From Methanospirillum hungatei (GTDB taxonomy: Archaea > Halobacteriota > Methanomicrobia > Methanomicrobiales > Methanospirillaceae): a stretch of DNA of 64,000 nucleotides. The notes under the pieces were generated by a model. That model ran no database searches. It saw nothing but the letters and a program-made list of their open reading frames with translations, and was not told the origin of the DNA. A program made the position numbers and the translations under genes. Below are positions 34,353 to 53,134 of this stretch, piece after piece; position 1 is the first letter of the stretch; each line of letters begins with the position of its first letter. The stretch covers positions 2,232,001 to 2,296,000 of the forward strand of contig NZ_CP077107.1 of assembly GCF_019263745.1 (NCBI RefSeq), given 5' to 3'.

Positions 34353-34484
34353 AATTCCTGGCTTTTCGCTCGAAGTTTTTATCTTTTACAGAATTATTTC
34401 AGGTTTGTGCCTAAAACCGTTTTTCAAACCTTCGCACTCTGAAGAAAAATTGATATGTGGTTTTAAGGATACGTATTGGGTAGT

Positions 34485-36905
34485 ATGATCATTACCCGAA
34501 AGAAGCTTACTGTTGTTCTTTTCTGTCTCATTTTTTCTGCTATTGTTGGGTTATTTTTCCGATTACAAACCCTGTTGGATTTCTCTTCTGGAATTATTCC
34601 TATCGTCATGCATGAGGATCCCTGGTATACTGTCAGACAGATAGAACAGATGGTACATAATTACCCATCTTATGCATGGTTTGATCCAATGCTGAATTAT
34701 CCGGATGGGAAAACCATCCAGTGGGGTCCTTTCTTTCCCTTTCTTGGGGCCACTCTTGCATTAGTTTTTGGTGCAACAACACAAGGAGATGTTATCAGGA
34801 TTGCTTCCTGGGTACCTCCATTGTTGTTTTTAGTGATGATTCCGATTAGTTTTTTGATCGGTAAAAAAATCTGGAATTTACGGGTAGGGGTGCTCTCTGC
34901 AATTCTGGTGAGTGTTGTGAATGGTGAATTTTTATATCGCTCCATGTACAGTAACCTTGATCACCATATTGCAGAGACGGTTTTATCGTTTGCCTTCATT
35001 TTAGGATATTTGTACATCCTTCAGTTTCTAAAAAATAAAAATCACTCAGAAAAATCAACATATCTTTACCTCTTGAGTCTTTTCTGCGGGGTGGTTTTTT
35101 ATATGGGATATATGAACATCCCGACAATAATGCTTGTAGCATTAACTATTCCGATATTTTTTGTTGTGTATGCTTTTCTTGAAGATGATGCAAGTTCGGT
35201 TTTTAAACTTTTTTTAGCGAACGCCATAATATTTGGGACATTTATTCTACTCTATCTTCTATCGGGAGTTCCCTATCATGGACTGGATATCCAAGGGTAT
35301 AATTATGGAGTTATTGCTGCTTCTATTGCGATAATACTGTTTTCACTCTTTGTTAGTGTATTAAAACAACATTTCGCAATACAGTCTGGAAAAGCAAATC
35401 CAAAATTTTTTATAATCTCTAGCGTCCTTACAGTTCTGATAATAATCTTGGGGTATTATTTTGGCATTATATACTCATTTTATAATTCATTTATCCGGTT
35501 TTTCTTTGCTTCATTTAGTAGTACTGGTATTGATGAATTAAGCCCTATATCATTAATGAGGGCCGTTTTAAGTTATAATGTTGCAATAGCCTTTTCAATA
35601 ATCGGGTTTTTCATTGTTGTTTATGCAATTATCAGGAATAAAAACCGGATTTTGATCTATTTTTTTATCTGGGCAACCTTACTTTCCATTGTATCAATAT
35701 CACAGGTTCGGTACCAATACTACGAAGGACCGATTGTTTGCATACTCATGGCGATCTGTCTTGATCAGATATATTTAAAATTGTCAGAACAATTAGATAA
35801 GAAAAAGAAGGTTACTAATTCTAGTCTGAATTCGAAAAATATCGCACTAATTTTTATTACTCTCATAGTCGTTGTGTATTATATTCTTTCTTTATCAATT
35901 GGATTATATGTTCTCCCAACTTTTTATGGAAAATCAATAAAAAGTGAATGGGTTGACACTACTCTGTGGCTCAAAAATAACACCCCTGCGCCATCATTAG
36001 ACTATTATGCTATCTATGAGCATGACTTATTTCAATATCCATCCAATACACATACTATTTTATCCTGGTGGGATTATGGGCATTATATCCTCACAATTGG
36101 AAACCGGCTCCCATTAGCGACTCCTCTACAAGATCGGGGTGCACATATAGCAGCATCATTTTTTTTAACAACGAATGAGACCAAAGCAAATCAGGTCATT
36201 TCACCATTTCATGCCAGGTATATCGTAACAAACTATGACCTCAGCCAAATCTATAACACTGTATCTCTATGGGCAGGCCAAAAATTCTCATATGAATCAT
36301 ATATTCATAATTTTATAAGAAAAAATAATGATAATGTGGCCCAATTGAAAGGACTTCGGGATCCATTCTTTTTGTCCATGTTTACACGAATGCATTATTT
36401 CGATGGTTCATTCATGAAAGCATCAGAAGGACATGAGATTTCATATGCAGATATTCCTTCTGATGGTGTGAATATATCATATATTGTTCATGATTTGGAT
36501 CCATCAACTCTGGATCTTAATCCAGCTTTCATAAAAAAAGAAATAATTTCATTTAACTATACACGTTCGACAGTCGACGTTCCGGCTCTGACATCATACC
36601 GGTTAATTTATGAATCACCAAAAGTGGTCTCGAATCTTACAGACTTCGAGATTCATCCGGTAAAGGTTTTCGAACATGTCAAGGGACACACCATCCCCGG
36701 AACCGGAACGGTAGAACTCCCTCTTGTTACAAACCAGGGCCGAAATTTTACCTACCGGCAACAGAGTGTCAACAACACATTCACTCTTCCCTATTCAACG
36801 ACGAATTCACCTTATGATGTTCATGCAACCGGACCATATCGGATTATTGAAACGAATGAGACTTTTGAGGTAGATGAGTCCCAAATAGAAAAGTACTATA
36901 TATAA
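34485..36905 (+). CDS. aglB: Oligosaccharyltransferase AglB (STT3 family)
   Basis: Protein of 806 residues from the ATG at 34485. About 12-13 membrane helices occupy the first 480 residues. The first external loop carries the catalytic acidic motif MHEDPWYTVRQIE, and a DHH follows in the second (NLDHHIAETV). The soluble C-terminal domain has the family signature WWDYGHY (SWWDYGHYILTIGNRLP). This is the single-subunit enzyme that moves glycan from dolichol phosphate to Asn of N-x-S/T. It lies between two homologous envelope genes, suggesting that at least one is its substrate. Confidence 0.93.
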   Translation: MIITRKKLTVVLFCLIFSAIVGLFFRLQTLLDFSSGIIPIVMHEDPWYTVRQIEQMVHNYPSYAWFDPMLNYPDGKTIQWGPFFPFLGATLALVFGATTQGDVIRIASWVPPLLFLVMIPISFLIGKKIWNLRVGVLSAILVSVVNGEFLYRSMYSNLDHHIAETVLSFAFILGYLYILQFLKNKNHSEKSTYLYLLSLFCGVVFYMGYMNIPTIMLVALTIPIFFVVYAFLEDDASSVFKLFLANAIIFGTFILLYLLSGVPYHGLDIQGYNYGVIAASIAIILFSLFVSVLKQHFAIQSGKANPKFFIISSVLTVLIIILGYYFGIIYSFYNSFIRFFFASFSSTGIDELSPISLMRAVLSYNVAIAFSIIGFFIVVYAIIRNKNRILIYFFIWATLLSIVSISQVRYQYYEGPIVCILMAICLDQIYLKLSEQLDKKKKVTNSSLNSKNIALIFITLIVVVYYILSLSIGLYVLPTFYGKSIKSEWVDTTLWLKNNTPAPSLDYYAIYEHDLFQYPSNTHTILSWWDYGHYILTIGNRLPLATPLQDRGAHIAASFFLTTNETKANQVISPFHARYIVTNYDLSQIYNTVSLWAGQKFSYESYIHNFIRKNNDNVAQLKGLRDPFFLSMFTRMHYFDGSFMKASEGHEISYADIPSDGVNISYIVHDLDPSTLDLNPAFIKKEIISFNYTRSTVDVPALTSYRLIYESPKVVSNLTDFEIHPVKVFEHVKGHTIPGTGTVELPLVTNQGRNFTYRQQSVNNTFTLPYSTTNSPYDVHATGPYRIIETNETFEVDESQIEKYYI

Positions 36906-37807: not shown

Positions 37808-37882
37808 CCTTTTTTGGGCAGGTATAAACCTTCAGTTTTTGTTGCCTAAATATTTTTTATTTTTTATATTTTCCATCCCCTA

Positions 37883-38224
37883 ATGAAGAGTGCTGAGTCG
37901 GCAGGAACATTACTCCGGAAAACAATAGAACTTGAAAAGAATCTTCCGGATGAGAGTCTTCGAAACAAGGTTCGTGAGCTTACTCTTATCTTGTCCAACC
38001 AAATTGTTAATAAAACCATACTCGATGAACTTTGGGAGGAACTTCAAATGCTGAAAGTGATAAAATACGCCGAAGAGAAAGGGATGAAAAAAGGGATAGA
38101 AAAAGGGACGATCGAAGTTGCCAAAAACCTCCTTTCTTTAGGAATGGATGCTGAGTTTGTTATGAAAGCGACTGGTTTAGATCTCCCTACAATCCGGTCC
38201 CTTGAGAAACTAACTCGTCAGTAG
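37883..38224 (+). pseudogene. 5'-truncated copy of the Rpn-family nuclease gene
   Basis: The 113 codons from the ATG at 37883 match residues 160-288 of the intact gene at 39032 (MKSAESAGTLLRKTIELEKN, ESLRNKVRELTLIL, LPTIRSLEKL), with a shorter KGIEKG stretch. The nuclease half is missing and no frame continues upstream. That internal Met is not a natural start, so the reading frame is a leftover of the segmental duplication, though a short coiled-coil product remains possible. Confidence 0.75.
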
Positions 38225-38240
38225 CCTCATCCCTTTTCTC

Positions 38241-38466
38241 CTTTCCGGATGAGAATCTTCGAAACAAGGTTCGTGAGCTAACTCTTATCTTATCAAACCG
38301 GATTGTGGATAAAAAGATACTTGATGAACTTTGGGACACATATTCGTCTTTCACAAAGATTCAATATACCTTTCCTGTAAAGCAGGGTTATGACGATCCC
38401 AATAGGTTGAAGTTTTCCTATCGTAACGAAGGCTTTTTCATGATCTATTTTGGGGTTATTTTCTGA
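38241..38466 (+). pseudogene. Second Rpn-gene fragment with conserved tail
   Basis: Directly after the truncated gene, the sequence again matches the Rpn segment for PDESLRNKVRELTLILSNRI and following codons to DELWD, then continues into a tail reading YTFPVK...YRNEGFFMIYFGVIF and a TGA. The same arrangement occurs after the intact copy (39913-40144). Fragment without start codon. Confidence 0.6.
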
Positions 38467-38601
38467 TTTGGGGGGTAATTTGGGAGATTTAATACTGTGT
38501 TTATATGTGGAGCCAGAATATTGTCGAATTGGCCTTTATTTTGCCTATATCCAAAGAAAATCGACTCTGTAGAGGGCCGGTATTTGTTCCGGATATGGGG
38601 G

Positions 38602-38612
38602 TATATAAATAG
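38602..38612 (+). promoter_or_regulatory. TATA-like element in repeat copy A
   Basis: The run TATATAAATAG in copy A matches the one in copy B at 40280-40290 upstream of the pilin-like gene. It lies about 195 bp before the truncated pilin ORF. Presumably a duplicated, possibly still active promoter. Confidence 0.4.
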
Positions 38613-38804
38613 TGGGGTACATGGAAAAAGGCTGTCTCCGGCCGTCTGTACGTGTATTTTAAAATTTGCTAATTGAGGTTATATGGTAAAATAAAACCTT
38701 ATAGGAGTATATTTGGAATTTATTTGGATTAATCCGTATTTTCTGCTTGTGTTTTTCTGCTGAAATGTATATCCCTTAAGAGGTTGATTACTCATGCAAT
38801 AGCC

Positions 38805-38951
38805 ATGTCTGGTCGGGTTAGTGAAGACGGTCTTTCCGAGGTAATCGGATTCATTCTGATTCTTGGTTTGTTAGTCGTTGTGTTATCTCTGTATGTTACC
38901 TATGTAGTTCCATCTGAAGGCCGGACACATGAGATCGAACAGATTGGTTAA
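38805..38951 (+). pseudogene. Truncated pilin-like gene, 48 codons
   Basis: Starts with the same MSGRVSEDGLSEVIGF as the pilin-like gene at 40483 and is nearly identical over 45 codons, then a 52-bp deletion brings in GGT TAA. The product would be just a class III signal peptide plus the hydrophobic pilin helix (ILILGLLVVVLSLYVTYVV). Created by the segmental duplication; whether it is expressed is unknown. Confidence 0.65.
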
Positions 38952-39031
38952 ATAAATTATTCATCGATAATCCAATCCTGTGAAAAACCGAATAATACTA
39001 ATCTCATGATCTCCAGAGTTTTTGGGCCTTC

Positions 39032-39898
39032 ATGAAAAAAATTCACCACAATAATTATGATCTGGTCCTGAAAGAGGCATTCTCTCTTTTCCATAACAAA
39101 TCTCTGGATTTTCTCGGTCTTGATCTCCCTCCCATTGTCAGTTTTATGGAGACCGAAATTGCCGAAGTTGAGACAACCGACGACATGATGGATCTCAACT
39201 TTCTCCTTCAGGACGGTTCAATCCTTCATCTCGAAGAGGAGACTTATCTCTCTATTGGGGACCTGATCCGGTTTGCTCATTATGATCTCCGGTTATACAA
39301 GCGGTATAAGAAAAGGATCCATACGGTGGTCCTTACTCCATCTGATGGATTACCAGGAACAAAGGTATTAGATACTGGTAATCTACAGTATAGTGTACTA
39401 CAGATTGTCTTTCAAGATAGGGATGGAGACTCACTCCTTGAAGAAATTCAATCCGCTCTGGGTAGAGGAGAACCGGTGAATGAACTGGAGATGATTTTCC
39501 TTCCTCTAATGAAGAGTGCTGAGTCGGCAGGAACATTACTCCGGAAAACAATAGAACTTGAAAAGAATCTTCCTGATGAGAGTCTTCGAAACAAGGTTCG
39601 AGAGCTAACTCTTATCTTATCAAACCGGATCGTGGATAAAAAGATACTTGATGAACTTTGGGAGGAGCTTCAAATGCTGAAAGTGATAAAATACGCCGAA
39701 GAGAAAGGGATGAAAAAGGGGATTGAAAAAGGAATAGAAAAAGGAATAGAAAAAGGGATAATGAAAGGTAAAGAGGAAGGGACTATCGAAGTTGCCAAAA
39801 ACCTCCTTTCTCTAGGAATGGATGATGATTTTGTTATGAAAGCAACTGGTTTAGATCTCCCTACAATCCGTTCCCTTGAGAAACTAGTTCATCAGTAG
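39032..39898 (+). CDS. Rpn-family PD-(D/E)XK nuclease
   Basis: Protein of 288 residues. The N-terminal 110 residues form the nuclease-like core found in Rpn/transposase-associated families: acidic DLNFLLQDGSILHLEEET (Asp and Glu of the PD-ExK type) and LIRFAHYDLRLYKRYKK. Residues 165-225 are helical. Then a run of repeats (KGMKKGIEKGIEKGIEKGIM) and a short C-terminal helix-turn-helix-like end (LGMDDDFVMKATGLDLPT). Rpn proteins promote recombination or DNA cleavage. The repeat run varies in length between this and the truncated copy. Two decayed fragments flank it, so the locus has been unstable. Confidence 0.75.
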   Translation: MKKIHHNNYDLVLKEAFSLFHNKSLDFLGLDLPPIVSFMETEIAEVETTDDMMDLNFLLQDGSILHLEEETYLSIGDLIRFAHYDLRLYKRYKKRIHTVVLTPSDGLPGTKVLDTGNLQYSVLQIVFQDRDGDSLLEEIQSALGRGEPVNELEMIFLPLMKSAESAGTLLRKTIELEKNLPDESLRNKVRELTLILSNRIVDKKILDELWEELQMLKVIKYAEEKGMKKGIEKGIEKGIEKGIMKGKEEGTIEVAKNLLSLGMDDDFVMKATGLDLPTIRSLEKLVHQ

Positions 39899-39912
39899 CC
39901 TCATCCCTTTTT

Positions 39913-40144
39913 TCCTTTCCTGATGAGAGTCTTCGAAACAAGGTTCGAGAGCTTACTCTTATCTTATCAAACCGGATCGTGGATAAAAAGATACTTGATG
40001 AACTCTGGGATACATATTCGTCTATTTCAAATCGATATTCAATATACCTTTCCTGTAAAGCGGAGTTATGACGTTCCCAATAGGTTGGAGTATTCCTATC
40101 GGAACGAAGGCTTTTTCATGATCTATTTTGGGGTTATTTTCTGA
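39913..40144 (+). pseudogene. Rpn-gene fragment after the intact copy
   Basis: Twelve bases past the Rpn stop the sequence repeats the codons for PDESLRNKVRELTLILSNRIVDKKILDELWD and runs into the tail YTFPVKRSYDVPNRLEYSYR ... FGVIF before TGA, as in copy A. The five amino-acid differences between the tails of the two copies and the shared stop show that both descend from one ancestor. Confidence 0.55.
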
Positions 40145-40279
40145 TTTAGGGGTTAATTTGGGAGATTTAATACTGTGTTTATATGTGGTGCCAGAATATT
40201 TTCGAATTGGCCTTTATTTTGCCTACATCCAAAGGAAACCGATTCTGTAGAGGGCCGGTATTTGTTCCGGATATGGGGG

Positions 40280-40290
40280 TATATAAATAG
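40280..40290 (+). promoter_or_regulatory. TATA-like element upstream of the pilin cluster
   Basis: TATATAAATAG preceded by G-rich sequence (GGGGG) forms the best archaeal promoter candidate before the six pilin-like genes. It is 193 bp ahead of the first ATG, so the mRNA would carry a long leader of about 165 nt. The 180 bp between holds no gene. Confidence 0.45.
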
Positions 40291-40482
40291 TGGGGTACAT
40301 GGAAACAGGGTGTCTCCGGCCGTCTGTACGTGTATTTTAAAATGTGCTAATTGAGGTTATATGGTAAAATAAAACAATATAGGAGTATATTTGGAATTTA
40401 TTTGGATTAATCCGTATTTTCTGCTTGTGTTTTTCTGCTGAAATGTATATCCCTTAAGAGGTTGATAACTCATGCAATAGCC

Positions 40483-42957
40483 ATGTCTGGTCGGGTCAGT
40501 GAAGACGGTCTTTCCGAGGTAATCGGATTCATTCTGATTCTTGGTTTGTTAGTCGTTGTGTTATCTCTGTATGTTACCTATGTAGTTCCATCTGAAGGCC
40601 GGACACATGAGATCGAACAGATGGATTACATCAAACAACAGTTCCTTGATTATAAATTGAGCACGGATGCTCTTTGGTTAAATAATCAAATCGGTGCATC
40701 AATCAGTCAGTCACTAAGAATGGGAACTGGTGGAGCGACAACTTCAGGTATGTTTGGTGGGTTCTCGTTGGTTTCTCCGGTTGGCTCATCTGGTTCGGTA
40801 ATGGTGAATCCGATGGAGAGATCGGAGCGGATGCATATTACTGCAACCGGTGTTACTCAGAACAATCCAGCAGTGTTCAGAGTGATAGATGGTCCGATAA
40901 TTGATAGTGTTAGTCCAAAATCTGTTGCTATGGGAGTACCAACTACAGTTATAATCGAGGGATCTGGGTTTAGTGATGGGATTGATAAAGTAGAGATTTT
41001 TTTTAACAATAAAAGATTAGTGGATCTTGATGATGATGATGAGGACGATAAAATTCTCATTAACAATAATCAGATAACGATTGAGGATTATTCATCCATA
41101 GAATCAGGGATAGTACATATCTATCTAAGAAAACCCGGTGGTGTCAGTTCGAATAATGCTTATATTTTGATAGAGTCTCATTCTAGCAGCATTCCTACTC
41201 CCAAAATTGACACATTCGTCAGTACTAGATACCTATTAGATTCAGATCCTATTGCTTCGTCTAGAATTATTGTAATAGGAACAGGAATATCAGAAGACTA
41301 CACTAAATTTTTTGTAAATAATAACTTTGTTGATAAAAGTGATTTAATTTTTAATTCTGGCTCCAGTCCCGTAAATATCATTAATTTACAGAAATATCTC
41401 GTTACAGAGGGATCGATACCAACTATTACCCCATGTGTTATTCCTATTACTATTGTAAATCCTCCTGGCATAACGACTCCGGGGGGTGGAAGTTCGAGTT
41501 ATGAATTCTATGTTCTCCCAAAAAAAACCGGTTTTCCAGAAATCTGGGGTATTTCGCTAAAACAAACATCTGTGACTAATCTTGGTTTGAATGAAGATCT
41601 GATTATCTATGGAGCAGGATTTGTTCCTCCTATTCATGTGATGTGGGGAGATGAACTCATTAACTCTTATTCCATTATTAATTCCAATGAAATTCATATT
41701 CCAAAAGAGTGGTTTAATGACCATTTGAATGAAGAAAAGACTGTGGAGATATCAGTTCGTAATGGTGGGTCATCAGGTTCGATTGAAAAGTCTAGCGGTT
41801 CATTGTACCCGGCTTATCAAATTATTGCTAGCCTTTATCCTATTGAACATATTTTTATCCGATTTGTTGATCTTGGTTACATACCATTTAATGTGATCCT
41901 CGACAGTGATGATAATCCTAGATCTATTACATTACACGAATTTTTTAGATATTATTATGGAGTCATATTAAAAGACTCATATAACGATCTTTCGATTGAA
42001 ATCAAGGCGAATCCAAGGATTATTAGTTCTGATTGGAATTATTTAAAAAATGCGAATCCTAATTCAAACCCTAATTTAAATTATTATAATATAACTTACC
42101 AGACGGATCTAGTTTTAAATGTCACTCAAAATAAAACCCATATAATGGGAAATTACGTGATAAAATCTAACATAAGCCAAAATGAAGAAATCTGGTTTGA
42201 TTTGATGAATCCAGCATATGGTATATGTGATTTCATTAAAGCCCCCTTTGAATTCAATCCTCAGGTAGTTTCGGGTTCTAATCCACCACTAGATCCAAAA
42301 TTCACTGGTGCCCATCGATTTAGCGTTGATTATGTGATTTTGTCTAACTTAAAAAATGGAACAATAATTATTGATAACGCTCTTGGCGGCCTCGAATATA
42401 ACTCTAAGAATTATTATTATCGCTCTCAGCAGGATTTCATCTATCAGAACGGAGGTGTTTTCGTAGAACAACCAGATGGCTCATACCCCTTAGTTCTCCC
42501 TCCCATATCGATCTCAAGAGATGGAGATAATCTCGTGGTTGGCATAACAAATATCCCTGTATCCGGATATGATACCGTTGGCGGTAGTTCACAGGTTCAG
42601 GTCTCGTCCACTTTGGATTCGGTAAATACCTTTGGCCTCACTCCTGGTTTACCGAATGCAAAATCAGTATTGTTACATATTGATCCAACAACAGAGAGTA
42701 ATTGGGTAAAATGGATTACTACATTAAAGGCTATTTGCGAAAATGCCCGAAGTAATGGTGTCCCTGTTGCGTTTTCTAGAGATGATGACAATTATGATTC
42801 TGCATGGGTAAGAATAGAGGACGATGTTTCTGGGGTTCCAATGTTGAATATAAGGGGTGGCGGTGATGAAAACGATCAGGATATTATTCTGGATCTAAAA
42901 ACATCGGAATTCTCTGTATCATTAAATCCGGTTGGCAAAGCAGTGAGTATTCGATGA
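40483..42957 (+). CDS. Large type IV pilin-like surface protein
   Basis: Protein of 824 residues from the ATG at 40483 (the longer frame begins at a TTG). N-terminus GRVSEDGLSEVIGF followed by about 20 hydrophobic residues is an archaeal class III signal: prepilin peptidase should cut between Gly and Leu. The ectodomain of some 780 residues is beta-rich, with two IPT/TIG-like Ig segments (PIIDSVSPKSVAMGVPTTVI, FPEIWGISLKQTSVTNLGLN), an acidic DDDDEDDK patch near residue 187 and no other recognised domain. Overlaps the next gene by 4 nt. Likely a minor pilin or adhesin; far larger than a structural pilin. Confidence 0.7.
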   Translation: MSGRVSEDGLSEVIGFILILGLLVVVLSLYVTYVVPSEGRTHEIEQMDYIKQQFLDYKLSTDALWLNNQIGASISQSLRMGTGGATTSGMFGGFSLVSPVGSSGSVMVNPMERSERMHITATGVTQNNPAVFRVIDGPIIDSVSPKSVAMGVPTTVIIEGSGFSDGIDKVEIFFNNKRLVDLDDDDEDDKILINNNQITIEDYSSIESGIVHIYLRKPGGVSSNNAYILIESHSSSIPTPKIDTFVSTRYLLDSDPIASSRIIVIGTGISEDYTKFFVNNNFVDKSDLIFNSGSSPVNIINLQKYLVTEGSIPTITPCVIPITIVNPPGITTPGGGSSSYEFYVLPKKTGFPEIWGISLKQTSVTNLGLNEDLIIYGAGFVPPIHVMWGDELINSYSIINSNEIHIPKEWFNDHLNEEKTVEISVRNGGSSGSIEKSSGSLYPAYQIIASLYPIEHIFIRFVDLGYIPFNVILDSDDNPRSITLHEFFRYYYGVILKDSYNDLSIEIKANPRIISSDWNYLKNANPNSNPNLNYYNITYQTDLVLNVTQNKTHIMGNYVIKSNISQNEEIWFDLMNPAYGICDFIKAPFEFNPQVVSGSNPPLDPKFTGAHRFSVDYVILSNLKNGTIIIDNALGGLEYNSKNYYYRSQQDFIYQNGGVFVEQPDGSYPLVLPPISISRDGDNLVVGITNIPVSGYDTVGGSSQVQVSSTLDSVNTFGLTPGLPNAKSVLLHIDPTTESNWVKWITTLKAICENARSNGVPVAFSRDDDNYDSAWVRIEDDVSGVPMLNIRGGGDENDQDIILDLKTSEFSVSLNPVGKAVSIR

Positions 42958-43430
42958 TTTCACGAAGAGAAGAAGGAGTATCGGATTTAATTGGAGTTAT
43001 TATTCTCGTCGCTATTGCTGCATTAGCAGTGGGTATTATTGGTTCAACATTTTTTTCGTATGTTTCAGTTGTAAGTATCCCTCGAGCTGAATTGTCAATA
43101 ATCTGGCAGAATGGACCAGAAGATGGTTCTGATATTAAAAAACCCTATATCGTTTTTGAGCGTGGAGAATCATTATGGTATAATTCTACTCGCGTAAAAA
43201 TCAACGATGAAGGTGTGGATTTATCTAGTATATGGATTAAAAAAAGTGGCAATAATCAATACTTTTTATGGAATAAAACAATTAGCGATGATGGGGTGAT
43301 CGTTCCTTTTTCGATTGGAGATACCTTGAAATGGGATGGGCATGATCAAGCTGATAATATTTCGATAACGTATATTCAGGCCGGAAATGAGATTCTCTTG
43401 ATGACCGGAGACAGAATTCCAGAAAAATAA
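42954..43430 (+). CDS. Type IV pilin-like protein
   Basis: Protein of 158 residues with N-terminus RREEGVSDLIGVIILVAIAA, the classical archaeal type IV pilin start (cut after Gly, then VSDLIGV and a hydrophobic helix). The ectodomain of about 120 residues has beta patterns and two N-x-S/T sequons (NSTR, NKTI) plus NISI near the end. Its size is that of a true pilin, so it could be the main subunit of whatever this cluster builds. ATGA overlap with the gene before it. Confidence 0.8.
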   Translation: MISRREEGVSDLIGVIILVAIAALAVGIIGSTFFSYVSVVSIPRAELSIIWQNGPEDGSDIKKPYIVFERGESLWYNSTRVKINDEGVDLSSIWIKKSGNNQYFLWNKTISDDGVIVPFSIGDTLKWDGHDQADNISITYIQAGNEILLMTGDRIPEK

Positions 43431-43452
43431 ACCATTCCGTGTTTGATGATAA

Positions 43453-46400
43453 ATGAGAAATAATAACGCAGTAAGTGAGTTAATCGGTGCACTTCTCATA
43501 ACTGGCGTCATCGCTGGAGGAATTGGTTTAATCGCTGTGATTCTTATCTCTCAACCTCCTCCGGTTGATCTCCCCGCTGCGGATTTTAAACTCGTGATTG
43601 ATGATAATGAAAAAATAATTCGTATCTCCCATGTACGGGGCGATTCCCTTCGGGTTTTTGATGAATCTGGTTCAAATTATTGGTCAAGTATTCATGTGAA
43701 TGTGGATGGGCAGCCATATGAAATAGTGGGAGAGGGTTCTCCTTATGGAAGTTCTCAGTTCAAATTAATAAAAAATTCTCCAAATCCCGATTATCTCTAC
43801 TACGCAGTTGGTGATGTGCTAGAGGCCTCATTTCCTGATATGAATAAAAGACCTGAAAATGTTCAGTTTATTTACAAAGATAATAGAGGTGGGGAATATG
43901 TTCTTTGGGGATATGGAGGTTCAGAAAAGTATACTCCCGGAAAAGTTTCATTTTCGTATACCCCAGCGAATCCATATCCTTGTGATCTAATCCAATTCCG
44001 GGATACTTCGTCAGTTACAGCTACATCATGGTCTTGGGATTTTAACGGTGATGGTGTAGAAGATAGTCGAGATCAAAACCCACTCCCTTATCAATACGAA
44101 AGTCCTGGTACCAAGACCGTAACTCTGACCGTTAGCAATGGGATCGATACATGGAAAACAAGTCGGATAGTTACGGTTCATTCGTTTATTGCTGATTTTA
44201 GTTTTGTTCCCTCAACACCCACTACAGGTACAGCGATCAAATTTTCTGATTCTTCAAAAGGAAATCCAGAAATCTGGGAATGGAATTTTGGTGATGGAAC
44301 ATCTTCAACTGATCCAAATCCAACTCATTCCTATACCATTCCTGGTAACTATATTGTTCAGCATAGAATCGGAAAAACCAGTTCTTCATGTAGTAATTGG
44401 AGTGAATGGGAACGGAAAACTATTGAAATAACTGAGTGTACTCCAATTAGTGGCTTGTCTTTTAGTTACACACCTGATACAATATGTATTAACTCCCGGA
44501 TTTTATTTAGATCAACGCTCTCTGAAGGTTCTGAACCAATATCATATACCTGGATAATTGATGGTATTCAATATAACGAGCAGAACCATTACCATGTGTT
44601 CACCCAACCGGGATCCCATTCGGTAATATTACGAGCTTCGAATTGCGCTGGTTCGGTAGAAACCCCTCCACGTGACGTTCTGGCGGTGGATTGTAGTTGT
44701 TCAGTGAAAATTACCTCTACTTCAACTGCAGGTGGCTCAATATCACCATCAGGTGAGATAACTCTGTCTTGTGGAAGTGATCAGATTTATACGATTACTC
44801 CTGATCCCTGTTATGCGATCTCTGATGTTTTGGTTGATGATGTCTCACAGGGTCCTATTAGTTCCTATACATTTGAAAAAGTAGCTGCTAATCATAAAAT
44901 CGAAGTTCAGTTTGAAAATCCCGGGAATTCTTACCAGATCGAATCAATTTCTGGTCCTGGTGGTTCCATAACCCCTTCAGGCATTACCTCAATTACTTGT
45001 GGAAATAATCAGGCTTTTACGATCACTGCCGATCCTTGTTATGTGATCTCTGATGTTTTGGTTGATGATGTCTCACAAGGTCCTATTAGTTCCTATACGT
45101 TTGAAAGTGTGCAATCCAACCATAAAATTGAGGTTCATTTTGAACACTCCGGAACAACATACCAGATCGAATCGATTTCTGGTCCTGGTGGTTCCATAAG
45201 CCCTTCAGGTATTGTCTCTATTCCTTGTGGAAATGATCAGGCTTTTACGATTAATCCTGATCCCTGTTATAAAATCTCTGATGTTTTGGTTGACGGTGTC
45301 TCGATCCCCGGTTCTTTCTCGAATCCCTATGTATATTCCGGGTTCACAAATGTTCAAAAAGACTACATTCTGGAAGCTGTTTTTACGGAAATACCCTATA
45401 ACATAACTATTAGTGTTACGGGGAATGGAGTGATTTCTCCAGGGACTGGCACCGTTCTTTGTGGTTCAAGTCCCATGTATACCATCACTGCTGATCCCTG
45501 TAATTATATTTCCTCCATACTGATAGATGGTGTTCCGCTTTCGGGTCCTTTCTCAAATCCGTATGTGTATTCGGGATTCACGAATGTTCAGCAAGATCAT
45601 ACTCTTTCGGCTGTTTTCACTGGAATCTCCTATAATATTACAACAAGTACAACCGGTAGTGGTACAATAACTCCTGGAAGTGGTCCTGTTCTCTGTGGTT
45701 CAAGTCCGGTGTATACTATCACTGCTGATCCCTGTAACCGAATTTCTTCTATCATTGTTGATGGAAACGCCCCTACTGGCCCATTTGAAAGCCCCTATAA
45801 TTACTCTGGTTTCTCGAATGTCCAGGAAGATCACACAATAGAAGCAGTATTTATTGAAAGTCCTTTAACAATCACGACAATAATAACGGGGAATGGAGTG
45901 ATTTCTCCAGGGACTGGCCCCGTTCTTTGTGGTTCAAGTCCCATATATACCATCACTGCCGGTTCCTGCAATCGTATTTCCTCCATATTGGTTGATGGGA
46001 TTCCGCTTTCGGGTCCTTTCTCAAATCCTTACGTGTATTCTGGATTCGCAAATATTCAGGAAGATCACATAATTGAAGCGGTATTTACTCCTGATACATT
46101 TAATATTACAGCTACAGCCGGGACCGGTGGATCAATATCACCATCAGGTGTCGTCCCGGTAACCTGCGGTGGCAGCCAGACCTTCACCTTCACACCAGAT
46201 TCAGGATACGAAATCGACGGAGTTATCGTTGATGGCCAGTCAATTGGTGTTGTAAACAGTTATACGTTCACTAATATTCAAGAAAACCATACGATCCACG
46301 TAGATTTTGGTAATACTGGTTACTGCCTTATTGCAGGATATATCACCGATGAAACAACCGGATTGGGTGTCCCTGGAATCAAGGTAGATGTATGGAATGA

Positions 46401-47469
46401 AGATAGGACTATGATCCTACGATCCGGAATTAGTCAATCAAATGGTTATTATGCTATAAAACACCCGAAGCCTAAGAAAAGTTACTGGGTCGATGTAAAC
46501 TGCCCGGATCAAGGAAATTGGCGAACAAATAACCCTGTTTCAAGATGGTATAATAATGTACATCTGAATCCTGCTGCATATTGTGATCAGACAAATATTA
46601 ATTTCAGTGGCAGACTTTATTCAAACATTGTTGAAAACGTTTTCATCCACGGCCAAAGATTGAGTTTTGCCGGTGACACCATCATGGGTCATGGGTCAAC
46701 TGTTATCATCACCGGAGGACTCAATACAGCAAGTACAAATCTCGGTGCTCAAATCGGAGCAACGACGATTTACATTAATGGTGATGTTGACCTGGCAACA
46801 GGAAGTGCCGGTCTTGGTTCATCAACAAAACCCGGAAATATCTACATAAATGGAGATTTAAGATTATGGAATGGTCAGCGGGAAATTTATGGTGATGTAT
46901 ACGTAAATGGAAATTTTGACTTGAAGGATGCCAGAATACATGGGATGGTATTCGTAGATGGTGATCTCACATTAGACTGGACCCCATACCTGGCAACTGA
47001 TGCCCGTATCTTTTACACTGGCCAGATCCATCATCCAAATAATTACGATCAAAATATTCTTGCAAAATGCATTAAATGGGATATCGTGCCAGGATTTACC
47101 ATTCCGGATGGATTGCCCTCGTTAAAACCTGATGACTGGTATTCATCCAATGGGTATGGAACAGGGGGACTATTAACCAGTGGAATGAAAGTATTTGCTG
47201 CTAGTTACTCTTCAACAGGATATCGGCCATCAGCAACAAATGTCATCATAGTGGCGAAAACCGGAGATATCACGATAACCGGTCTTGGGGGAAGCAGCCT
47301 GACCGGAATATTCTTTGCACCATATGGAAAAGTCACATTTGGTGGCGGATCCTTGCAAGGATTAATTCTCACTCGGGATGGTTTTTTTGTTACCAGTGGA
47401 GGAACAGATGTCACATTTTTACCCATTCATCACTACATCTCCAATCCCTCTGAGTATCCATTCCAATAA
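43453..47469 (+). CDS. Giant modular pilin-like surface protein (1338 residues)
   Basis: N-terminus NNNAVSELIGALLITGVIAG is a pilin-type signal and helix. A pilin-like domain follows to about 155, then three PKD domains (about 160-415; WSWDFNGDG and WEWNFGDG cores), seven InlB-like B-repeat units of about 75 residues (about 417-955), a carboxypeptidase-regulatory-like domain (about 957-1050, TDETTGLGVPGIKVDVW) and a C-terminal beta-helix domain (about 1058-1338; IYINGDVDL, IYINGDLRL, VYVNGNFDL). B-repeats 1-6 share a cysteine pair (CG...DPC) likely to form one disulphide each; repeat 7 has lost the second Cys. Some repeats are near-identical in DNA. Probably an adhesin or tip protein. Confidence 0.75.
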   Translation: MRNNNAVSELIGALLITGVIAGGIGLIAVILISQPPPVDLPAADFKLVIDDNEKIIRISHVRGDSLRVFDESGSNYWSSIHVNVDGQPYEIVGEGSPYGSSQFKLIKNSPNPDYLYYAVGDVLEASFPDMNKRPENVQFIYKDNRGGEYVLWGYGGSEKYTPGKVSFSYTPANPYPCDLIQFRDTSSVTATSWSWDFNGDGVEDSRDQNPLPYQYESPGTKTVTLTVSNGIDTWKTSRIVTVHSFIADFSFVPSTPTTGTAIKFSDSSKGNPEIWEWNFGDGTSSTDPNPTHSYTIPGNYIVQHRIGKTSSSCSNWSEWERKTIEITECTPISGLSFSYTPDTICINSRILFRSTLSEGSEPISYTWIIDGIQYNEQNHYHVFTQPGSHSVILRASNCAGSVETPPRDVLAVDCSCSVKITSTSTAGGSISPSGEITLSCGSDQIYTITPDPCYAISDVLVDDVSQGPISSYTFEKVAANHKIEVQFENPGNSYQIESISGPGGSITPSGITSITCGNNQAFTITADPCYVISDVLVDDVSQGPISSYTFESVQSNHKIEVHFEHSGTTYQIESISGPGGSISPSGIVSIPCGNDQAFTINPDPCYKISDVLVDGVSIPGSFSNPYVYSGFTNVQKDYILEAVFTEIPYNITISVTGNGVISPGTGTVLCGSSPMYTITADPCNYISSILIDGVPLSGPFSNPYVYSGFTNVQQDHTLSAVFTGISYNITTSTTGSGTITPGSGPVLCGSSPVYTITADPCNRISSIIVDGNAPTGPFESPYNYSGFSNVQEDHTIEAVFIESPLTITTIITGNGVISPGTGPVLCGSSPIYTITAGSCNRISSILVDGIPLSGPFSNPYVYSGFANIQEDHIIEAVFTPDTFNITATAGTGGSISPSGVVPVTCGGSQTFTFTPDSGYEIDGVIVDGQSIGVVNSYTFTNIQENHTIHVDFGNTGYCLIAGYITDETTGLGVPGIKVDVWNEDRTMILRSGISQSNGYYAIKHPKPKKSYWVDVNCPDQGNWRTNNPVSRWYNNVHLNPAAYCDQTNINFSGRLYSNIVENVFIHGQRLSFAGDTIMGHGSTVIITGGLNTASTNLGAQIGATTIYINGDVDLATGSAGLGSSTKPGNIYINGDLRLWNGQREIYGDVYVNGNFDLKDARIHGMVFVDGDLTLDWTPYLATDARIFYTGQIHHPNNYDQNILAKCIKWDIVPGFTIPDGLPSLKPDDWYSSNGYGTGGLLTSGMKVFAASYSSTGYRPSATNVIIVAKTGDITITGLGGSSLTGIFFAPYGKVTFGGGSLQGLILTRDGFFVTSGGTDVTFLPIHHYISNPSEYPFQ

Positions 47470-47645
47470 CCCATTTTTGAACCGGAAAACTCATATTCAC
47501 GACTCAATGCCATAAGAAAAAGAGATAAAAAAATTTGATTTTTATTCCAATTACTCTAAATATCAAAAACAAATCTCAATATGGCTGCGTTTCATAAGGT
47601 TAAAAGAAAGTAGTAAAAGAAAACTTTTAATATGAATTCGGGTTT

Positions 47646-48731
47646 ATGATTCTTTACAGTATCCTCCGACAAATGACATCCATGACCCCGATGCAGGTTC
47701 GAGAAAAACCTCCGGAATCCTCTCCATTTGAGCATGCAGTGAGCCAGTTAATATCATCAATTCTTATTGTCTCACTCGCGGTAGCTCTGGGAGCCATAAC
47801 ACTTGTCGTCTATTCTGATCTTATCCTAAAACCGATTGAAAAATCTGCATATATCGCAGTTGAAGGGAATGTCTCAAAACCAGCAGAATATGAGGTCTTC
47901 ACATTAAGGCATCTTCAGGGTGATGTCGGGTACTTCGGAAATCATGGAGAAGGGTATCCATTGTATATACAAGCCTCATCCGGATCATTATCTGCAAAGG
48001 CAGTACCTGATCCAGCTGAGATAACATGGAAACCCGGAATGATTCTTTATGTCTACAGAAACACCACTGATTTTGTAGTAACGGATGATCTGTCCACGAT
48101 AGCAGGTGCCCAAAAATTCGACGGATCAGAGATTCAGGTCTCGGTTGTCGATTCAACAAATGATATACTTATCTATAGCAAAAGTCAGGGCATAGGCGGA
48201 CCAGTGGAAGAAGAATTTGCCCGGGGACCAGGATTTACAATATATGGCTGGGAGAGATTTACCTCCCCACCTGCCCCGACATCATCAGATCAACATTGGG
48301 CAACCATGGTAGTGGATGGAAATCGCGATAATAACCGCAGGTTCCATCTTCAACACAATCAACTGAACAACAGGTTTGAGTTTGCTTTGAGGACTACACA
48401 GATGGCTACGACAAATCAACAAGCCCGCTGGATACAATCCCCATCTGGACCCCAGCAGGATGTCTGGTATTGTATCACTGGAACATATAATCAGACAGAC
48501 GGGCGGATTCGATTATATATAAACGGGAATGAAGTTTCTTCCAGTACATTAGACTCCAGTGGAATTGCACCCTCTCCGGGATTCTATCAGATCGGCGGTC
48601 CCCAAGGAGTCACCTTTTCCTCTGTCGCAAATCAAAGAAAACTCCTGGGTGATGTCAGGGGCGTTACAACCGTTGAAGAAGTGTTATTGCCTGACGAAAT
48701 CCTGTCAATATATAGTAAAGGAAATCCATAA
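47646..48731 (+). CDS. Pilin-like protein with LamG-type lectin domain
   Basis: Protein of 361 residues. A polar leader of about 30 residues precedes FEHAVSQLISSILIVSLAVA, a pilin-type hydrophobic segment with the likely cut after HA. A domain shared in style with the next two genes follows (EYEVFTLRHLQGDVGYFGNH). Residues 200-350 resemble a LamG/concanavalin-like sandwich (FTIYGWERFTSPP, VWYCITGTYNQTDGRIRLYI). The start codon has no obvious ribosome site and Met at 47673 is an alternative. Likely glycan-binding. Confidence 0.68.
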   Translation: MILYSILRQMTSMTPMQVREKPPESSPFEHAVSQLISSILIVSLAVALGAITLVVYSDLILKPIEKSAYIAVEGNVSKPAEYEVFTLRHLQGDVGYFGNHGEGYPLYIQASSGSLSAKAVPDPAEITWKPGMILYVYRNTTDFVVTDDLSTIAGAQKFDGSEIQVSVVDSTNDILIYSKSQGIGGPVEEEFARGPGFTIYGWERFTSPPAPTSSDQHWATMVVDGNRDNNRRFHLQHNQLNNRFEFALRTTQMATTNQQARWIQSPSGPQQDVWYCITGTYNQTDGRIRLYINGNEVSSSTLDSSGIAPSPGFYQIGGPQGVTFSSVANQRKLLGDVRGVTTVEEVLLPDEILSIYSKGNP

Positions 48732-48802
48732 TCCTGAATAATAGTAGCCAAGATGGCTACAAATGCAATAAATAGACAGATTGATGGGAGATATTTAGAC
48801 CT

Positions 48803-50212
48803 ATGATGCCTGAAAAAGCCTACAATAAGAACTATTTCAAAAACATTACCGAACATGCAGTAACACCAACGGTCAGTGTAATACTCATTCTTTTTCTCGT
48901 TGTTGCTCTCGCTGGAATTATCTATGTCATCATCTTCGGGCTTGCCTCATCAGTAGAAAAAACGGCTTATGTAGCAACTGATGCACAAATCGTTAATATT
49001 ACTCCGGAAATTCAGGCAATTGAAGTTATGCACCGGAACGGAGATGTCATGTATTATGAAGGCCAGGGGGATAATGTACAATATGAGGTCAGGTTCATTG
49101 TTGACACACGTGATAACGCACCCGTTGTAAAAGTCAATCCTTCTTTTCTTACCTCCGATAAAACATGGTCTCCGGGAGATAGGGTTATCATATTTAACCG
49201 GACTGATGGGTACTATCTGACCAATGATATTTCTTTAATAAATGGAGCAATATCTCCCTCTCAAGGACCCTTATCTGTTCGGATTATTGATAACACTCAT
49301 GATCAGCTTATCGCAAATCGGGGTGTTGGCGGCACAACCGGAGGGGGTGGAGGTTCTGAGCCTATTGATGGTATTGAGAAAATCTTCCTTTATGGCCAAA
49401 GATTGAGCTTTGCCGGTGATACCATTAGTGGTCCGGATGCAACAGTAGTAATTACCGGGGGATTGAATACCGCAAATACAAACCTAGGAGCTCAAATTGC
49501 TGTAACGACCATATACATCGATGGTGATGTCGATTTATCAACAGGGAGTGCTGGTCTTGGTTCATCTGTAAAACCTGGAAAAATTTACATAAATGGAGAT
49601 TTGAGGTTATGGGAGGGTGGACGAAATATCTATGGGGATGTATATGTTGATGGAAATTTTGATCTGAAAGATGCCAGAATTCATGGAAATGTATTTGTAA
49701 ATGGTGATCTTACCCTGGGCTGGACACCGTATCTGGCAGAAGACACCCGAATATATTACACCGGCACGATTTCTCATCCGGACTATTATGCCTCAGAGAT
49801 ACTTGCAAAATGCATTCAAACGTCAAGCGTACCTGGTTTTACCATTCCAACCGGATTACCTTCACTAAAACCAGATGACTGGTATACATCAAATGGATAT
49901 GTTTCAGGAGGTCAACTCACCAGTGGGATGAAGGTATATGCTAACAGCTACTCTTCAACAGAATATCGCCCATCAGCAACAAATGTTGTGATAGTAGCAA
50001 AATCCGGTGATATCACAATCACCGACCTTGGAGGAAGCGGCGTGTCTGGTGTGTTCTTTGCTCCAAATGGAAGGGTTACCTTTGGAGGTGGATCCCTACA
50101 GGGATTAATCCTATCTCAGGATGGATTTTTTGTTACCAGTGGGGGGACGGATGTAATTTTTAAAAGTATTCAGGATTTCATCAGTAATCCCAATGATTAC
50201 CCATTCCAGTAA
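48803..50212 (+). CDS. Pilin-like protein with C-terminal beta-helix domain
   Basis: Protein of 469 residues. Leader of 21 residues, then ITEHAVTPTVSVILILFLVV, a pilin-type helix. Residues 45-180 form a small domain (AIEVMHRNGDVMYYEGQG, TWSPGDRVIIFNRTDGYYL). A Gly-rich hinge (GGTTGGGGGS) leads to a beta-helix domain of 280 residues that is close to 75% identical by eye with the end of the 1338-residue protein (FYGQRLSFAGDT-type start, GLPSLKPDDWY, SGGTDV). Same N-terminal module as the next gene, different C-terminal module: a clear case of domain exchange. Confidence 0.72.
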   Translation: MMPEKAYNKNYFKNITEHAVTPTVSVILILFLVVALAGIIYVIIFGLASSVEKTAYVATDAQIVNITPEIQAIEVMHRNGDVMYYEGQGDNVQYEVRFIVDTRDNAPVVKVNPSFLTSDKTWSPGDRVIIFNRTDGYYLTNDISLINGAISPSQGPLSVRIIDNTHDQLIANRGVGGTTGGGGGSEPIDGIEKIFLYGQRLSFAGDTISGPDATVVITGGLNTANTNLGAQIAVTTIYIDGDVDLSTGSAGLGSSVKPGKIYINGDLRLWEGGRNIYGDVYVDGNFDLKDARIHGNVFVNGDLTLGWTPYLAEDTRIYYTGTISHPDYYASEILAKCIQTSSVPGFTIPTGLPSLKPDDWYTSNGYVSGGQLTSGMKVYANSYSSTEYRPSATNVVIVAKSGDITITDLGGSGVSGVFFAPNGRVTFGGGSLQGLILSQDGFFVTSGGTDVIFKSIQDFISNPNDYPFQ

Positions 50213-50341
50213 GTGTTCCGTTATGAAATATAAGGAATTTCTGACTTCGATTTCCGGCACGTGATGGATATATAATCCGGATAATAGAATATATTTTAAT
50301 TATTGCCATTCCTGAAAAACATTCAACACCATGTGACATTC

Positions 50342-51256
50342 ATGAATATTCGACCAACTATAAGATCTCAGAAAATCCATTCAAAGAGAGTCATAGATCA
50401 TGCGGTAACCCCTACAGTCAGTATAATACTCATTCTTTTTCTCGTTGTTGCCCTTGCTGGGATCATCTATGCTCTCATATTCGGCCTTGCCTCTTCGGTT
50501 GAGAAAACTGCATATGTTGCCACTGATGCGAATATTGTAAACATAACTCCTGGCATCCAGGTGATTGAGGTCATGCATCGGAATGGGGATGTCATGTATT
50601 ATGAAAACCAAAGCCGTGATGCTCAGTATGAGGTCAGGTTTATCATAGACTCTGGTGATTCTTCTTCAGTTGTACAGACGGATCCAAGTCTCTTATCAAC
50701 AGGAAGCATATGGTCTCCGGGAAAAAAGGTAATAATATTTAAGAGAATTGATGGTTATTACCTGACTGACGATATCTCCTTAATAGCAAATCCGGAGGCA
50801 TTCCCTCCTGGTCCGGTAGGAATACGGGTAATTGATAACACTCATGATCAACTTATCGCGTATAAGGGGACAGGAAATATTGGTGGAACTCTAACACCGA
50901 CAACCGAACCTACCACAGAGCCAACAACTGAACCCACCACAGTGCCTACGACACCGACTATCAGTCCAACGCCGACTCCGCCACCATCTCAAGGTTGTAT
51001 AAATTGTCCATTAGGTGAATCATTCAGTGTAGCATTTACAACGGAAATCATCGGACCCCGAACCATACGATTCAAAGATGCTTCATCACCACAACCAAAT
51101 ATTCGGGCCTGGACATTTGGAGATGGGGGATCAGATACTGGCGAAATTGTTGTTCATACATACTCGACTTCAGGGCCATACAAAATTACTCTGACCGTAA
51201 AGAAAAACAATAGTCCCTGTACCTGCACATTGACACAGTGGACTACTGTCTCATAA
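50342..51256 (+). CDS. Pilin-like protein with Thr/Pro stalk and PKD domain
   Basis: Protein of 304 residues from the ATG at 50342; the longer frame starts at a TTG. RVIDHAVTPTVSIILILFLV is the pilin-type segment, followed by a module close to that of the preceding gene (IEVMHRNGDVMYYENQ, WSPGKKVIIFKRIDGYYLTD). A stalk of TEPTTEPTTEPTTVPTTP repeats follows, then a C-terminal PKD domain (IRFKDASSPQPNIRAWTFGD, VVHTYSTSGPYKITL). The repetitive Thr stalk is a likely site of heavy glycosylation. Last gene of the cluster; a 267-bp spacer with no gene follows. Confidence 0.72.
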   Translation: MNIRPTIRSQKIHSKRVIDHAVTPTVSIILILFLVVALAGIIYALIFGLASSVEKTAYVATDANIVNITPGIQVIEVMHRNGDVMYYENQSRDAQYEVRFIIDSGDSSSVVQTDPSLLSTGSIWSPGKKVIIFKRIDGYYLTDDISLIANPEAFPPGPVGIRVIDNTHDQLIAYKGTGNIGGTLTPTTEPTTEPTTEPTTVPTTPTISPTPTPPPSQGCINCPLGESFSVAFTTEIIGPRTIRFKDASSPQPNIRAWTFGDGGSDTGEIVVHTYSTSGPYKITLTVKKNNSPCTCTLTQWTTVS

Positions 51257-51523: not shown

Positions 51524-53134
51524 ATGAGGTTTTTCAATACTGCTGGTCCGGTAAATTGTGTGAAGCATTACTGTCTGGATCCTCTCTCCCGGTTTGTTCT
51601 TGAAGAAATCCTCTCCCTTATCCGTCAGGAAAAATATTTCGTCCTCCATGCTCCTAGGCAGACCGGAAAGACCTCATGTATGCTTGCCCTGATGAAGTAT
51701 CTGAATGATACCGGGGAATACCTGTCATTGTTCACAAATATTGAAAGTGCCCAAGTTGCACGTGAAGATGTAACCCGCGGAATACGTTCAGTCATGAGTT
51801 CCATTGGAATATATGCTCGTGATTTTTTAGGCAATCAGTTTGTCCTTGATAATGATAATGAAATACTGCAGTAAAGAGGGGCATATAATGCACTTGAGGA
51901 GGTCCTAAGTCAATGGTCCAGCCACGAACAATTACCAATCGTGCTCATTATCGATGAGACTGATGCACTGATTGGAGACACTCTCATATCTCTTCTCCGC
52001 CAGCTTCGTTCAGGATATTCCCGCAGACCGGCAAACTTTCCTTCATCCATAATTCTTTGTGGAGTCCGTGATGTCCGTGACTATCGGATTTATTCAAACC
52101 AGGAAAAATCCATCATCACCGGTGGCAGTGCATTTAACATCAAAGCAAAATCCCTTCGCCTTGGCAATTTTTCCCGTGAAGAAACAATAAGCCTCTGTCT
52201 GCAACACACTACTGAAACCGGGCAGAAATTCGAACCAAACGCCCTTGACAAAATCTGGGGAAATTCTCAAGGCCAGCCCTGGCTGGTCAATGCCCTCGCT
52301 TATGATGCCTGTTTTGAACTTCTGGAAACAAAGGATCGCTCCATACCTATCACTGTTGAAATAATTGAAAAGACAAAAATGCGACTGATTCTTCGTCATG
52401 AAACTCACCTCGACCAGCTTGCCGACAAACTTCGGGAAGAACGGGTACGCCGGATTGTGGAACCAATGATCGAAGGAACATCGGTTGACTCCTCCATTAA
52501 CGATGATGATCTCTCGTATGCGATAGACCTTGGCCTTGTAACACGTGGATTAGATGGTCTGCAGATTGCAAACCCTATCTATCGTGAGGTCATCCCTCGT
52601 CAGTTAACAGCAATTACAAGTTATAATCTTGAAGCAACAATTCCTCGTGCTCCTTTTATCCGGCCTGATGGCAGACTTGACACCCGGTACCTGTTTACAG
52701 CGTTCCAGCAGTTTTACCGTGAAAATTCCGGAAGCTGGCTTCAGATTGCCCAGTACCGTGAGGCAGGTCCCCAGCTCCTGCTCATGGCTTTCCTACAGCG
52801 GGTAGTCAACGGCGGTGGGAGAATTGAGCGTGAATATGGTCTTGGCCGGGGCAGACTTGACCTTCTTATTATCTGGCCGGTTCAGTCAGGCGAAATCCAG
52901 CGGATCGTTATTGAATGCAAAGTTTTGCATCATTCACTTGAAAAAACCATTCGTGATAGTCTTTCCCAGACATATCGGTACGCAGACACATGCAGTGCAA
53001 CCGAATCCCACCTGGTCATCTTCGACCGGACTCCGGAAAAACCCTGGGATGAGAAAATTTTCTGCCGGGAGGAAGTATATTCTAAAACAGAGGTTCATCC
53101 GGTGAGGTTCCCTGTCACAGTCTGGGGTTTGTGA
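51524..53134 (+). pseudogene. AAA-ATPase/PD-(D/E)XK nuclease gene interrupted by an in-frame TAA
   Basis: Two open stretches (51524-51874 and from 51875) lie in the same frame and are separated only by TAA at 51872-51874, within an otherwise continuous protein (NEILQ-stop-RGAYNALEEVL). The first half holds Walker A (APRQTGKTS, about 43-51), the second Walker B (VLIIDETD). The end carries a PD-(D/E)XK nuclease-like core (GRLDLLIIWP, RIVIECKV). The family is the AAA-like domain plus nuclease proteins common in Methanomicrobiales. There is no further damage, so the mutation is recent or read through. It is not a UAG, so pyrrolysine is not an explanation. Confidence 0.8.

What the first reader, a model, noticed from the sequence alone, without database searches (positions are those of the whole stretch)
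40483..51256. Six-gene cluster of large pilin-like proteins, a possible undescribed surface system
Six consecutive genes each start with an archaeal pilin-type segment (VSDLIGV, VSELIGA, LSEVIGF, AVSQLIS, AVTPTVS) but carry ectodomains of 120 to 1300 residues built from Ig-like, PKD, InlB-like, LamG-like and beta-helix modules. No assembly ATPase or platform gene is present, so they use machinery elsewhere. The first two overlap by 4 nt and share a promoter candidate. They could form a pseudopilus decorated with adhesins, or a surface fringe.
Basis: partly seen in the sequence, partly recalled or inferred. Interest (0 to 1): 0.75.

Follow-up and report, generated by a model that had tools for sequence, protein, structure and literature searches.

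The report
Pilus-tip adhesin operon of a methanogen
Six neighbouring genes in a Methanospirillum-like methanogen encode pilin-type proteins carrying large sticky domains; they most likely form the adhesive tip of a type IV pilus whose assembly motor lies about a megabase away, and two of them end in a domain that bacteria also put on their own pilins.

Summary
In detail: six consecutive + strand genes, each with an archaeal class III (prepilin) signal, have ectodomains of up to 1,300 residues (TIG, PKD, InlB-like, LamG, beta-helix). They are not an isolated system.

Gene 1 belongs to a DUF7289 pilin family; with genes 2 and 3 it matches an A-B-C operon found in most Methanomicrobiales. Methanocalculus has a comparable six- to seven-gene version. 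The operon tracks one pilus motor: in 159 genomes, gene A and the platform type encoded at 3.365 Mb agree in 147 (109 both, 38 neither); 0 of 20,000 within-genus shuffles reach that. In Methanocorpusculum-like genomes and one other genome both parts lie within about 6-12 kb. A second platform of the same genome shows no such link.

The last ~279 residues of genes 3 and 5 form a DUF7305-like domain. In 20 of 23 bacterial loci it ends a canonical bacterial type IV prepilin.

Best reading: minor (tip) pilins with swappable adhesive modules, built by a PilB3-like pilus machine. The pilus class and a minor pilin of variable length were known (Makarova 2016); the giant modular operon, its pairing with this motor and the shared cap appear new. 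Assembly, tip location and adhesion are inferred, not shown.

The parts
40483..42957 (+). Gene 1 (A): DUF7289 pilin-like protein with TIG insert; prepilin site EDG|LSEVIGF
   Evidence: order-wide relatives
40861..42378 (+). Lineage-specific insert of about 500 residues (TIG/Ig-like) between the conserved N-terminus and the DUF7289 core of gene 1
   Evidence: alignment with compact relatives; TIG; low-confidence model
42954..43430 (+). Gene 2 (B): short pilin, EEG|VSDLIGV; overlaps gene 1 by 4 nt
   Evidence: Pilin_N over cut-off; 50% identical relative in G010
43453..47469 (+). Gene 3 (C): 1338-aa pilin-like protein, NNA|VSELIGA, with PKD domains, InlB-like repeats and a C-terminal cap
44702..46308 (+). 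InlB-like (Flg_new_2) repeats of gene 3, period about 228-234 nt
   Evidence: direct repeats; Pfam
46630..47466 (+). C-terminal DUF7305-like cap of gene 3
   Evidence: 77% identical to that of gene 5; Pfam weak matches in all members
47646..48731 (+). Gene 4: pilin-like N-terminus (EHA|VSQLISS) with a LamG lectin-like domain (about 48234-48701)
   Evidence: LamG relative inside gene C of Methanocalculus
48803..50212 (+). Gene 5: pilin-like N-terminus (EHA|VTPTVSV) and C-terminal cap
   Evidence: Pilin_N over cut-off; model
49373..50209 (+). C-terminal DUF7305-like cap of gene 5, shared with bacterial type IV prepilins
50303..51256 (+). Gene 6: pilin-like N-terminus (DHA|VTPTVSI), Thr/Pro-rich linker, PKD domain
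38784..38960 (+). Truncated duplicate of the 5' end of gene 1 (90% identical, in-frame stop), part of a tandem duplication

Best explanation
The six genes encode minor, modular pilins of a PilB3-like archaeal type IV pilus. The A24 prepilin peptidase (G000:1717951-1718775) would cut the leaders after G or A. Gene 1 (A), with a long N-terminal helix and a conserved DUF7289 core, would be the constant adaptor; genes 2 and 3 (B, C) and genes 4-6 would dock beside it. The ATPase and platform at G000:3365355-3369199, possibly regulated by the two KaiC-like ATPases beside them, would push this set out first, so that PKD, LamG, InlB-like and beta-helix ectodomains sit at the pilus tip and bind cells, sheath or particles. 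Shown here: prepilin signals, domain content, a conserved A-B-C core, co-occurrence and in some relatives linkage with that motor class, and the same cap on bacterial prepilins. Inferred: processing, assembly by that motor, tip position, adhesion and ligands.
For: Prepilin signals on all six and Pilin_N over cut-off on four. A-B-C core across the order. Gene A and the 3.37-Mb platform type agree in 147 of 159 genomes; no within-genus shuffle of 20,000 reaches this; the 1.95-Mb platform shows no such pattern. One-locus arrangement in Methanocorpusculum-like genomes and close linkage in G127, with the linked ATPases grouping with the 3.37-Mb one and a linked DUF7289 protein over cut-off. ATPase matches PilB3_C over cut-off. 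The cap of genes 3 and 5 ends canonical bacterial prepilins in 20 of 23 bacterial loci. Lectin-like and Ig-like modules vary between species. A24 peptidase with expected motifs.
Against: No linkage in this genome. Twelve discordant genomes, two with gene A but no such platform. Presence calls were set by hand from E-values, and the test controls for genus only. The 1.95-Mb ATPase also matches PilB3_C, and motors may share pilin sets (PMC4858521). No expression, processing or localisation data. No PDB fold match for either model.
Confidence: 0.72

Rival explanations
1. Surface fringe: the prepilin helix serves only as a membrane anchor and the proteins never join a filament.
For: Ectodomains of over 1,000 residues are hard to pack along a filament; no motor gene is adjacent.
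Against: Joint loss with one motor class, linkage to it in relatives, and the cap's use on bacterial prepilins.
Confidence: 0.13
2. They are pilins, but assembled mainly by another motor of this genome (1.95 Mb or 1.05 Mb) or by several interchangeably.
For: The 1.95-Mb ATPase is also PilB3-like; Makarova et al. argue that motors share pilins (PMC4858521); 10 genomes have the 3.37-Mb type without gene A.
Against: The 1.95-Mb platform is present in genomes lacking gene A and missing from some that have it; the 1.05-Mb set has its own pilins.
Confidence: 0.1
3. Ordinary secreted surface proteins with Sec signal peptides, unrelated to pili.
For: PKD, Ig-like and InlB-like modules are common in secreted archaeal proteins (general knowledge).
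Against: The hydrophobic stretch follows the G/A site in all six; four exceed the Pilin_N cut-off; the pattern recurs in relatives.
Confidence: 0.04

Closest known systems
PilB3-type (Clade 2) euryarchaeal type IV pili with the minor pilin arCOG02911 (Makarova et al. 2016, PMC4858521)
   Same: Motor class (PilB3_C match), pilins encoded away from the motor, one-locus version in Methanocorpusculum, a prepilin of variable length that tends to duplicate
   Different: Giant modular partners (B, C and genes 4-6) and the C-terminal cap were not described in the text read; identity of gene A with arCOG02911 was not verified
Streptococcus sanguinis PilABC tip pilins (PMC9934059)
   Same: Prepilins with grafted modules, one of them a concanavalin A-like lectin, as in gene 4
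   Different: Bacterial scaffold; tip complex supported by structures and models there; ectodomains here are larger and more varied
Myxococcus Kil pilus with four exchangeable tips (PMC12075869)
   Same: Paralogous clusters of large minor pilins with added domains; this genome also has two gene-A clusters
   Different: Bacterial Tad pilus that kills prey; exchange of tips is not shown here
Bacterial DUF7305-type minor pilins of Bacillota
   Same: The same C-terminal domain, up to about 51% identical to that of gene 5, ending a prepilin, often near pilus genes
   Different: Bacterial N_methyl prepilin scaffold (GITLIEL) instead of the archaeal one

Membership tests
Archaeal type IV pilins | Class III signal: G/A cleavage site before an uncharged hydrophobic stretch | tested here: met
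   All six
Archaeal type IV pilins | Pilin_N (PF07790) over cut-off | tested here: inconclusive
   Met by genes 2, 3, 5, 6; not by genes 1 and 4
Archaeal type IV pilins | Cleavage by prepilin peptidase and incorporation in a filament | not testable with these tools
   Peptidase gene is present
PilB3-type type IV pilus | PilB3-like ATPase and platform in the genome | tested here: met
   L088: T2SSE, PilB3_C, T2SSF over cut-offs
PilB3-type type IV pilus | Pilin set associated with that motor across genomes | tested here: met
   147 of 159 concordant; linkage in relatives
arCOG02911 minor pilin | Membership of gene A in this cluster | not tested
   arCOG models not available; DUF7289 also found in Haloferax volcanii and Methanosarcina acetivorans
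Tip-located minor pilin complex | Position at the filament tip and priming of assembly | not testable with these tools
   Inferred from size, operon form and bacterial analogues
DUF7305 domain | PF23981 over cut-off | tested here: inconclusive
   Gene 5: 16.9 bits, below 27; all 22 members match at E up to 1, best 8.4e-8; bacterial L219 is over cut-off

The most novel reading that the evidence does not exclude
Methanogens carry exchangeable adhesive pilus tips: a constant DUF7289 adaptor with swappable giant modular pilins, two such sets in one Methanospirillum genome, some capped by a module that has passed between archaeal and bacterial prepilin scaffolds.
Probability: 0.3. Interest if true: 0.72.

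Novelty: new variant of a known kind. Interest (0 to 1): 0.5.

Why it matters
It names a candidate motor and a conserved adaptor for an order-wide set of uncharacterised methanogen surface proteins, so that pilus-borne attachment in syntrophic and granule-forming methanogens becomes directly testable. It also points to one C-terminal module used on prepilins of both domains of life.

Tried and rejected
Six-gene order as a fixed unit: rejected, since within the genus only the A-B(-C) core recurs. The 1.95-Mb platform as the specific partner: not favoured, because its presence does not follow gene A. Linkage in this genome: none; the pilus and archaellum motor loci lie elsewhere. Fold identity by Foldseek against PDB: no match at E <= 0.001 for either model; the best for gene 5 was 4wa0, a possible adhesin domain, at E 2.1e-3 with TM about 0.2, too weak to use. 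The insert of gene 1 was predicted at low confidence. A sequence search of solved structures with the cap profile gave nothing convincing. Direction of transfer of the cap between archaea and bacteria: not resolved by the tree. Literature searches for DUF7289 and for tapirin with type IV pili found no paper.

Full report
What is there. Six + strand genes fill 40483-51256. Each begins with a polar leader, a G or A, S or T at +2 and an uncharged hydrophobic stretch, the archaeal prepilin pattern; in a scan of the window's ORFs these six alone reach the top score. Genes 2, 3, 5 and 6 exceed Pfam's cut-off for Pilin_N; gene 1 carries DUF7289 and a TIG domain, gene 3 PKD domains and an InlB-like repeat, gene 4 LamG, gene 6 PKD. 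Genes 1 and 2 overlap by 4 nt, genes 2 and 3 are 22 nt apart, and 176 nt separate gene 3 from gene 4. Two transcription units, 1-3 and 4-6, are therefore possible. Promoters and expression were not tested.

The organism. The window lies in a 3.39-Mb single-contig genome. A genome of the same genus has a contig of 3,544,738 bases, which from memory is the size of Methanospirillum hungatei JF-1, so the genus is probably Methanospirillum.

A conserved core. Gene 1 has matches in 47 of 61 genomes, most of them in the same order; some of the weakest matches may be other pilins. The N-terminal part of the family is strongly conserved: LSEVIGF, then YVVPxxGRxxEIxHM and a DYKxxxDSLW region. Compact members are about 300 aa; the window protein has the same two ends with an insert of about 500 residues that carries TIG. 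In most relatives gene A is followed by a VSEVIGA pilin (B) and often a third large pilin (C). Methanocalculus taiwanensis has A-B-C plus four more pilins, close to the window's layout (L094). In G002 the core is 505, 2185 and 1823 aa. Modules differ between species: PKD, LamG, PA14, InlB-like repeats. The LamG domain of gene 4 has a 42% identical relative inside gene C of Methanocalculus, so modules appear to move between these pilins.

The machine. The genome has one A24 peptidase hit, with the DxRxR and GMAD motifs expected around the catalytic aspartates, and four ATPase/platform sets: the archaellum (1.28 Mb), one at 1.05 Mb with its own pilins, and ones at 1.95 Mb and 3.37 Mb without nearby pilins. 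Two platforms were searched across relatives. The 3.37-Mb type follows gene A; the 1.95-Mb type does not. In 159 genomes at least 85% complete, both gene A and the 3.37-Mb type are present in 109, both absent in 38, A alone in 2, platform alone in 10. Presence was set by hand from E-values and coverage. Fisher's p is 6e-25, and 0 of 20,000 shuffles within genera reach the 147 agreements, the highest being 137. This respects genus but is not a full phylogenetic test. Eight genera lack both in every genome searched, and several genera hold both states, which suggests repeated joint loss.

Linkage in relatives. In Methanocorpusculum-like genomes (L145-L149; one contig is 1,804,962 bases, from memory M. 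labreanum) the ATPase and platform, PilA-type pilins and A-like pilins lie in one region, in L145 and L146 with the two KaiC-like genes as well; in L144 the A-B-C genes lie about 6 kb from the platform. A linked A-like protein is over the DUF7289 cut-off. The linked ATPases group with the 3.37-Mb ATPase, apart from the other three of this genome, with support 91/93 and long branches noted. The 3.37-Mb ATPase matches PilB3_C over cut-off; so does the 1.95-Mb one.

The cap. The last 279 residues of genes 3 and 5 are 77% identical to each other. All 22 aligned members match DUF7305 at E up to 1, gene 5 itself below the cut-off. A model of gene 5 is confident over this part and shows many short strands, read here as a beta-helix; Foldseek found no significant PDB match. 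Of 57 loci in named genomes, 23 are bacterial, mostly Bacillota. In 20 of these 23 the domain ends a protein that starts with a canonical bacterial prepilin motif such as GITLIEL, and pilus ATPase or prepilin peptidase genes are often nearby; Pfam finds the N_methyl motif in all five scanned. The cap is therefore used on two different prepilin scaffolds. The tree does not settle the direction of transfer.

Mechanism. In bacterial systems minor pilins can form the filament tip, start assembly and carry adhesive modules (PMC9934059, PMC10191384, PMC12075869). By analogy gene A would be the constant adaptor; its model has one helix over residues 6-64, longer than the 24-residue helix modelled in gene 5. 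B, C and genes 4-6 would carry the binding modules. This is inference: no assembly, position or ligand is shown.

Known and new. Makarova and colleagues described PilB3-type pili with pilins in trans, a one-locus version in Methanocorpusculum labreanum, and a minor pilin of variable length, arCOG02911 (PMC4858521). Gene A may belong to that family, which was not verified. What I did not find described there are the statistical pairing with one of two PilB3-like motors, the giant modular partners and the shared cap; supplements of that paper were not available.

Noticed in passing
window 37868-38960 and 39494-40638: A tandem duplication (spacing about 1.63-1.68 kb, 88-95% identical) carries the 3' half of an Rpn-type gene, the intergenic region and the first codons of gene 1, leaving a truncated upstream copy. 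G010 contig C71 has a similar fragment in the same neighbourhood.
   Followed up: partly
window 34476-36905: An AglB-type oligosaccharyltransferase lies about 3.6 kb upstream of gene 1; an STT3-like gene is also near the gene-1 fragment in G010.
   Followed up: no
L084 5951-11102 (G000:1539950-1545101): Second gene-A cluster of the same genome: 587, 221, 285 and 148-aa pilins and a 394-aa protein with DUF4114; the same five-gene order is in L107, L109 and L112.
   Followed up: partly
L091 3910-6624 and 6794-7914: Two near-identical copies of a pair of PilA-type pilin genes with the same flanking 431-aa gene.
   Followed up: no
L131 6421-7014: An archaellin-like gene lies next to the platform in three relatives (family F20).
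   Followed up: no
window 51524-53134: Two adjacent ORFs look like one ATPase-type gene broken in two; a 526-aa relative with a very similar start lies in L159.
   Followed up: no
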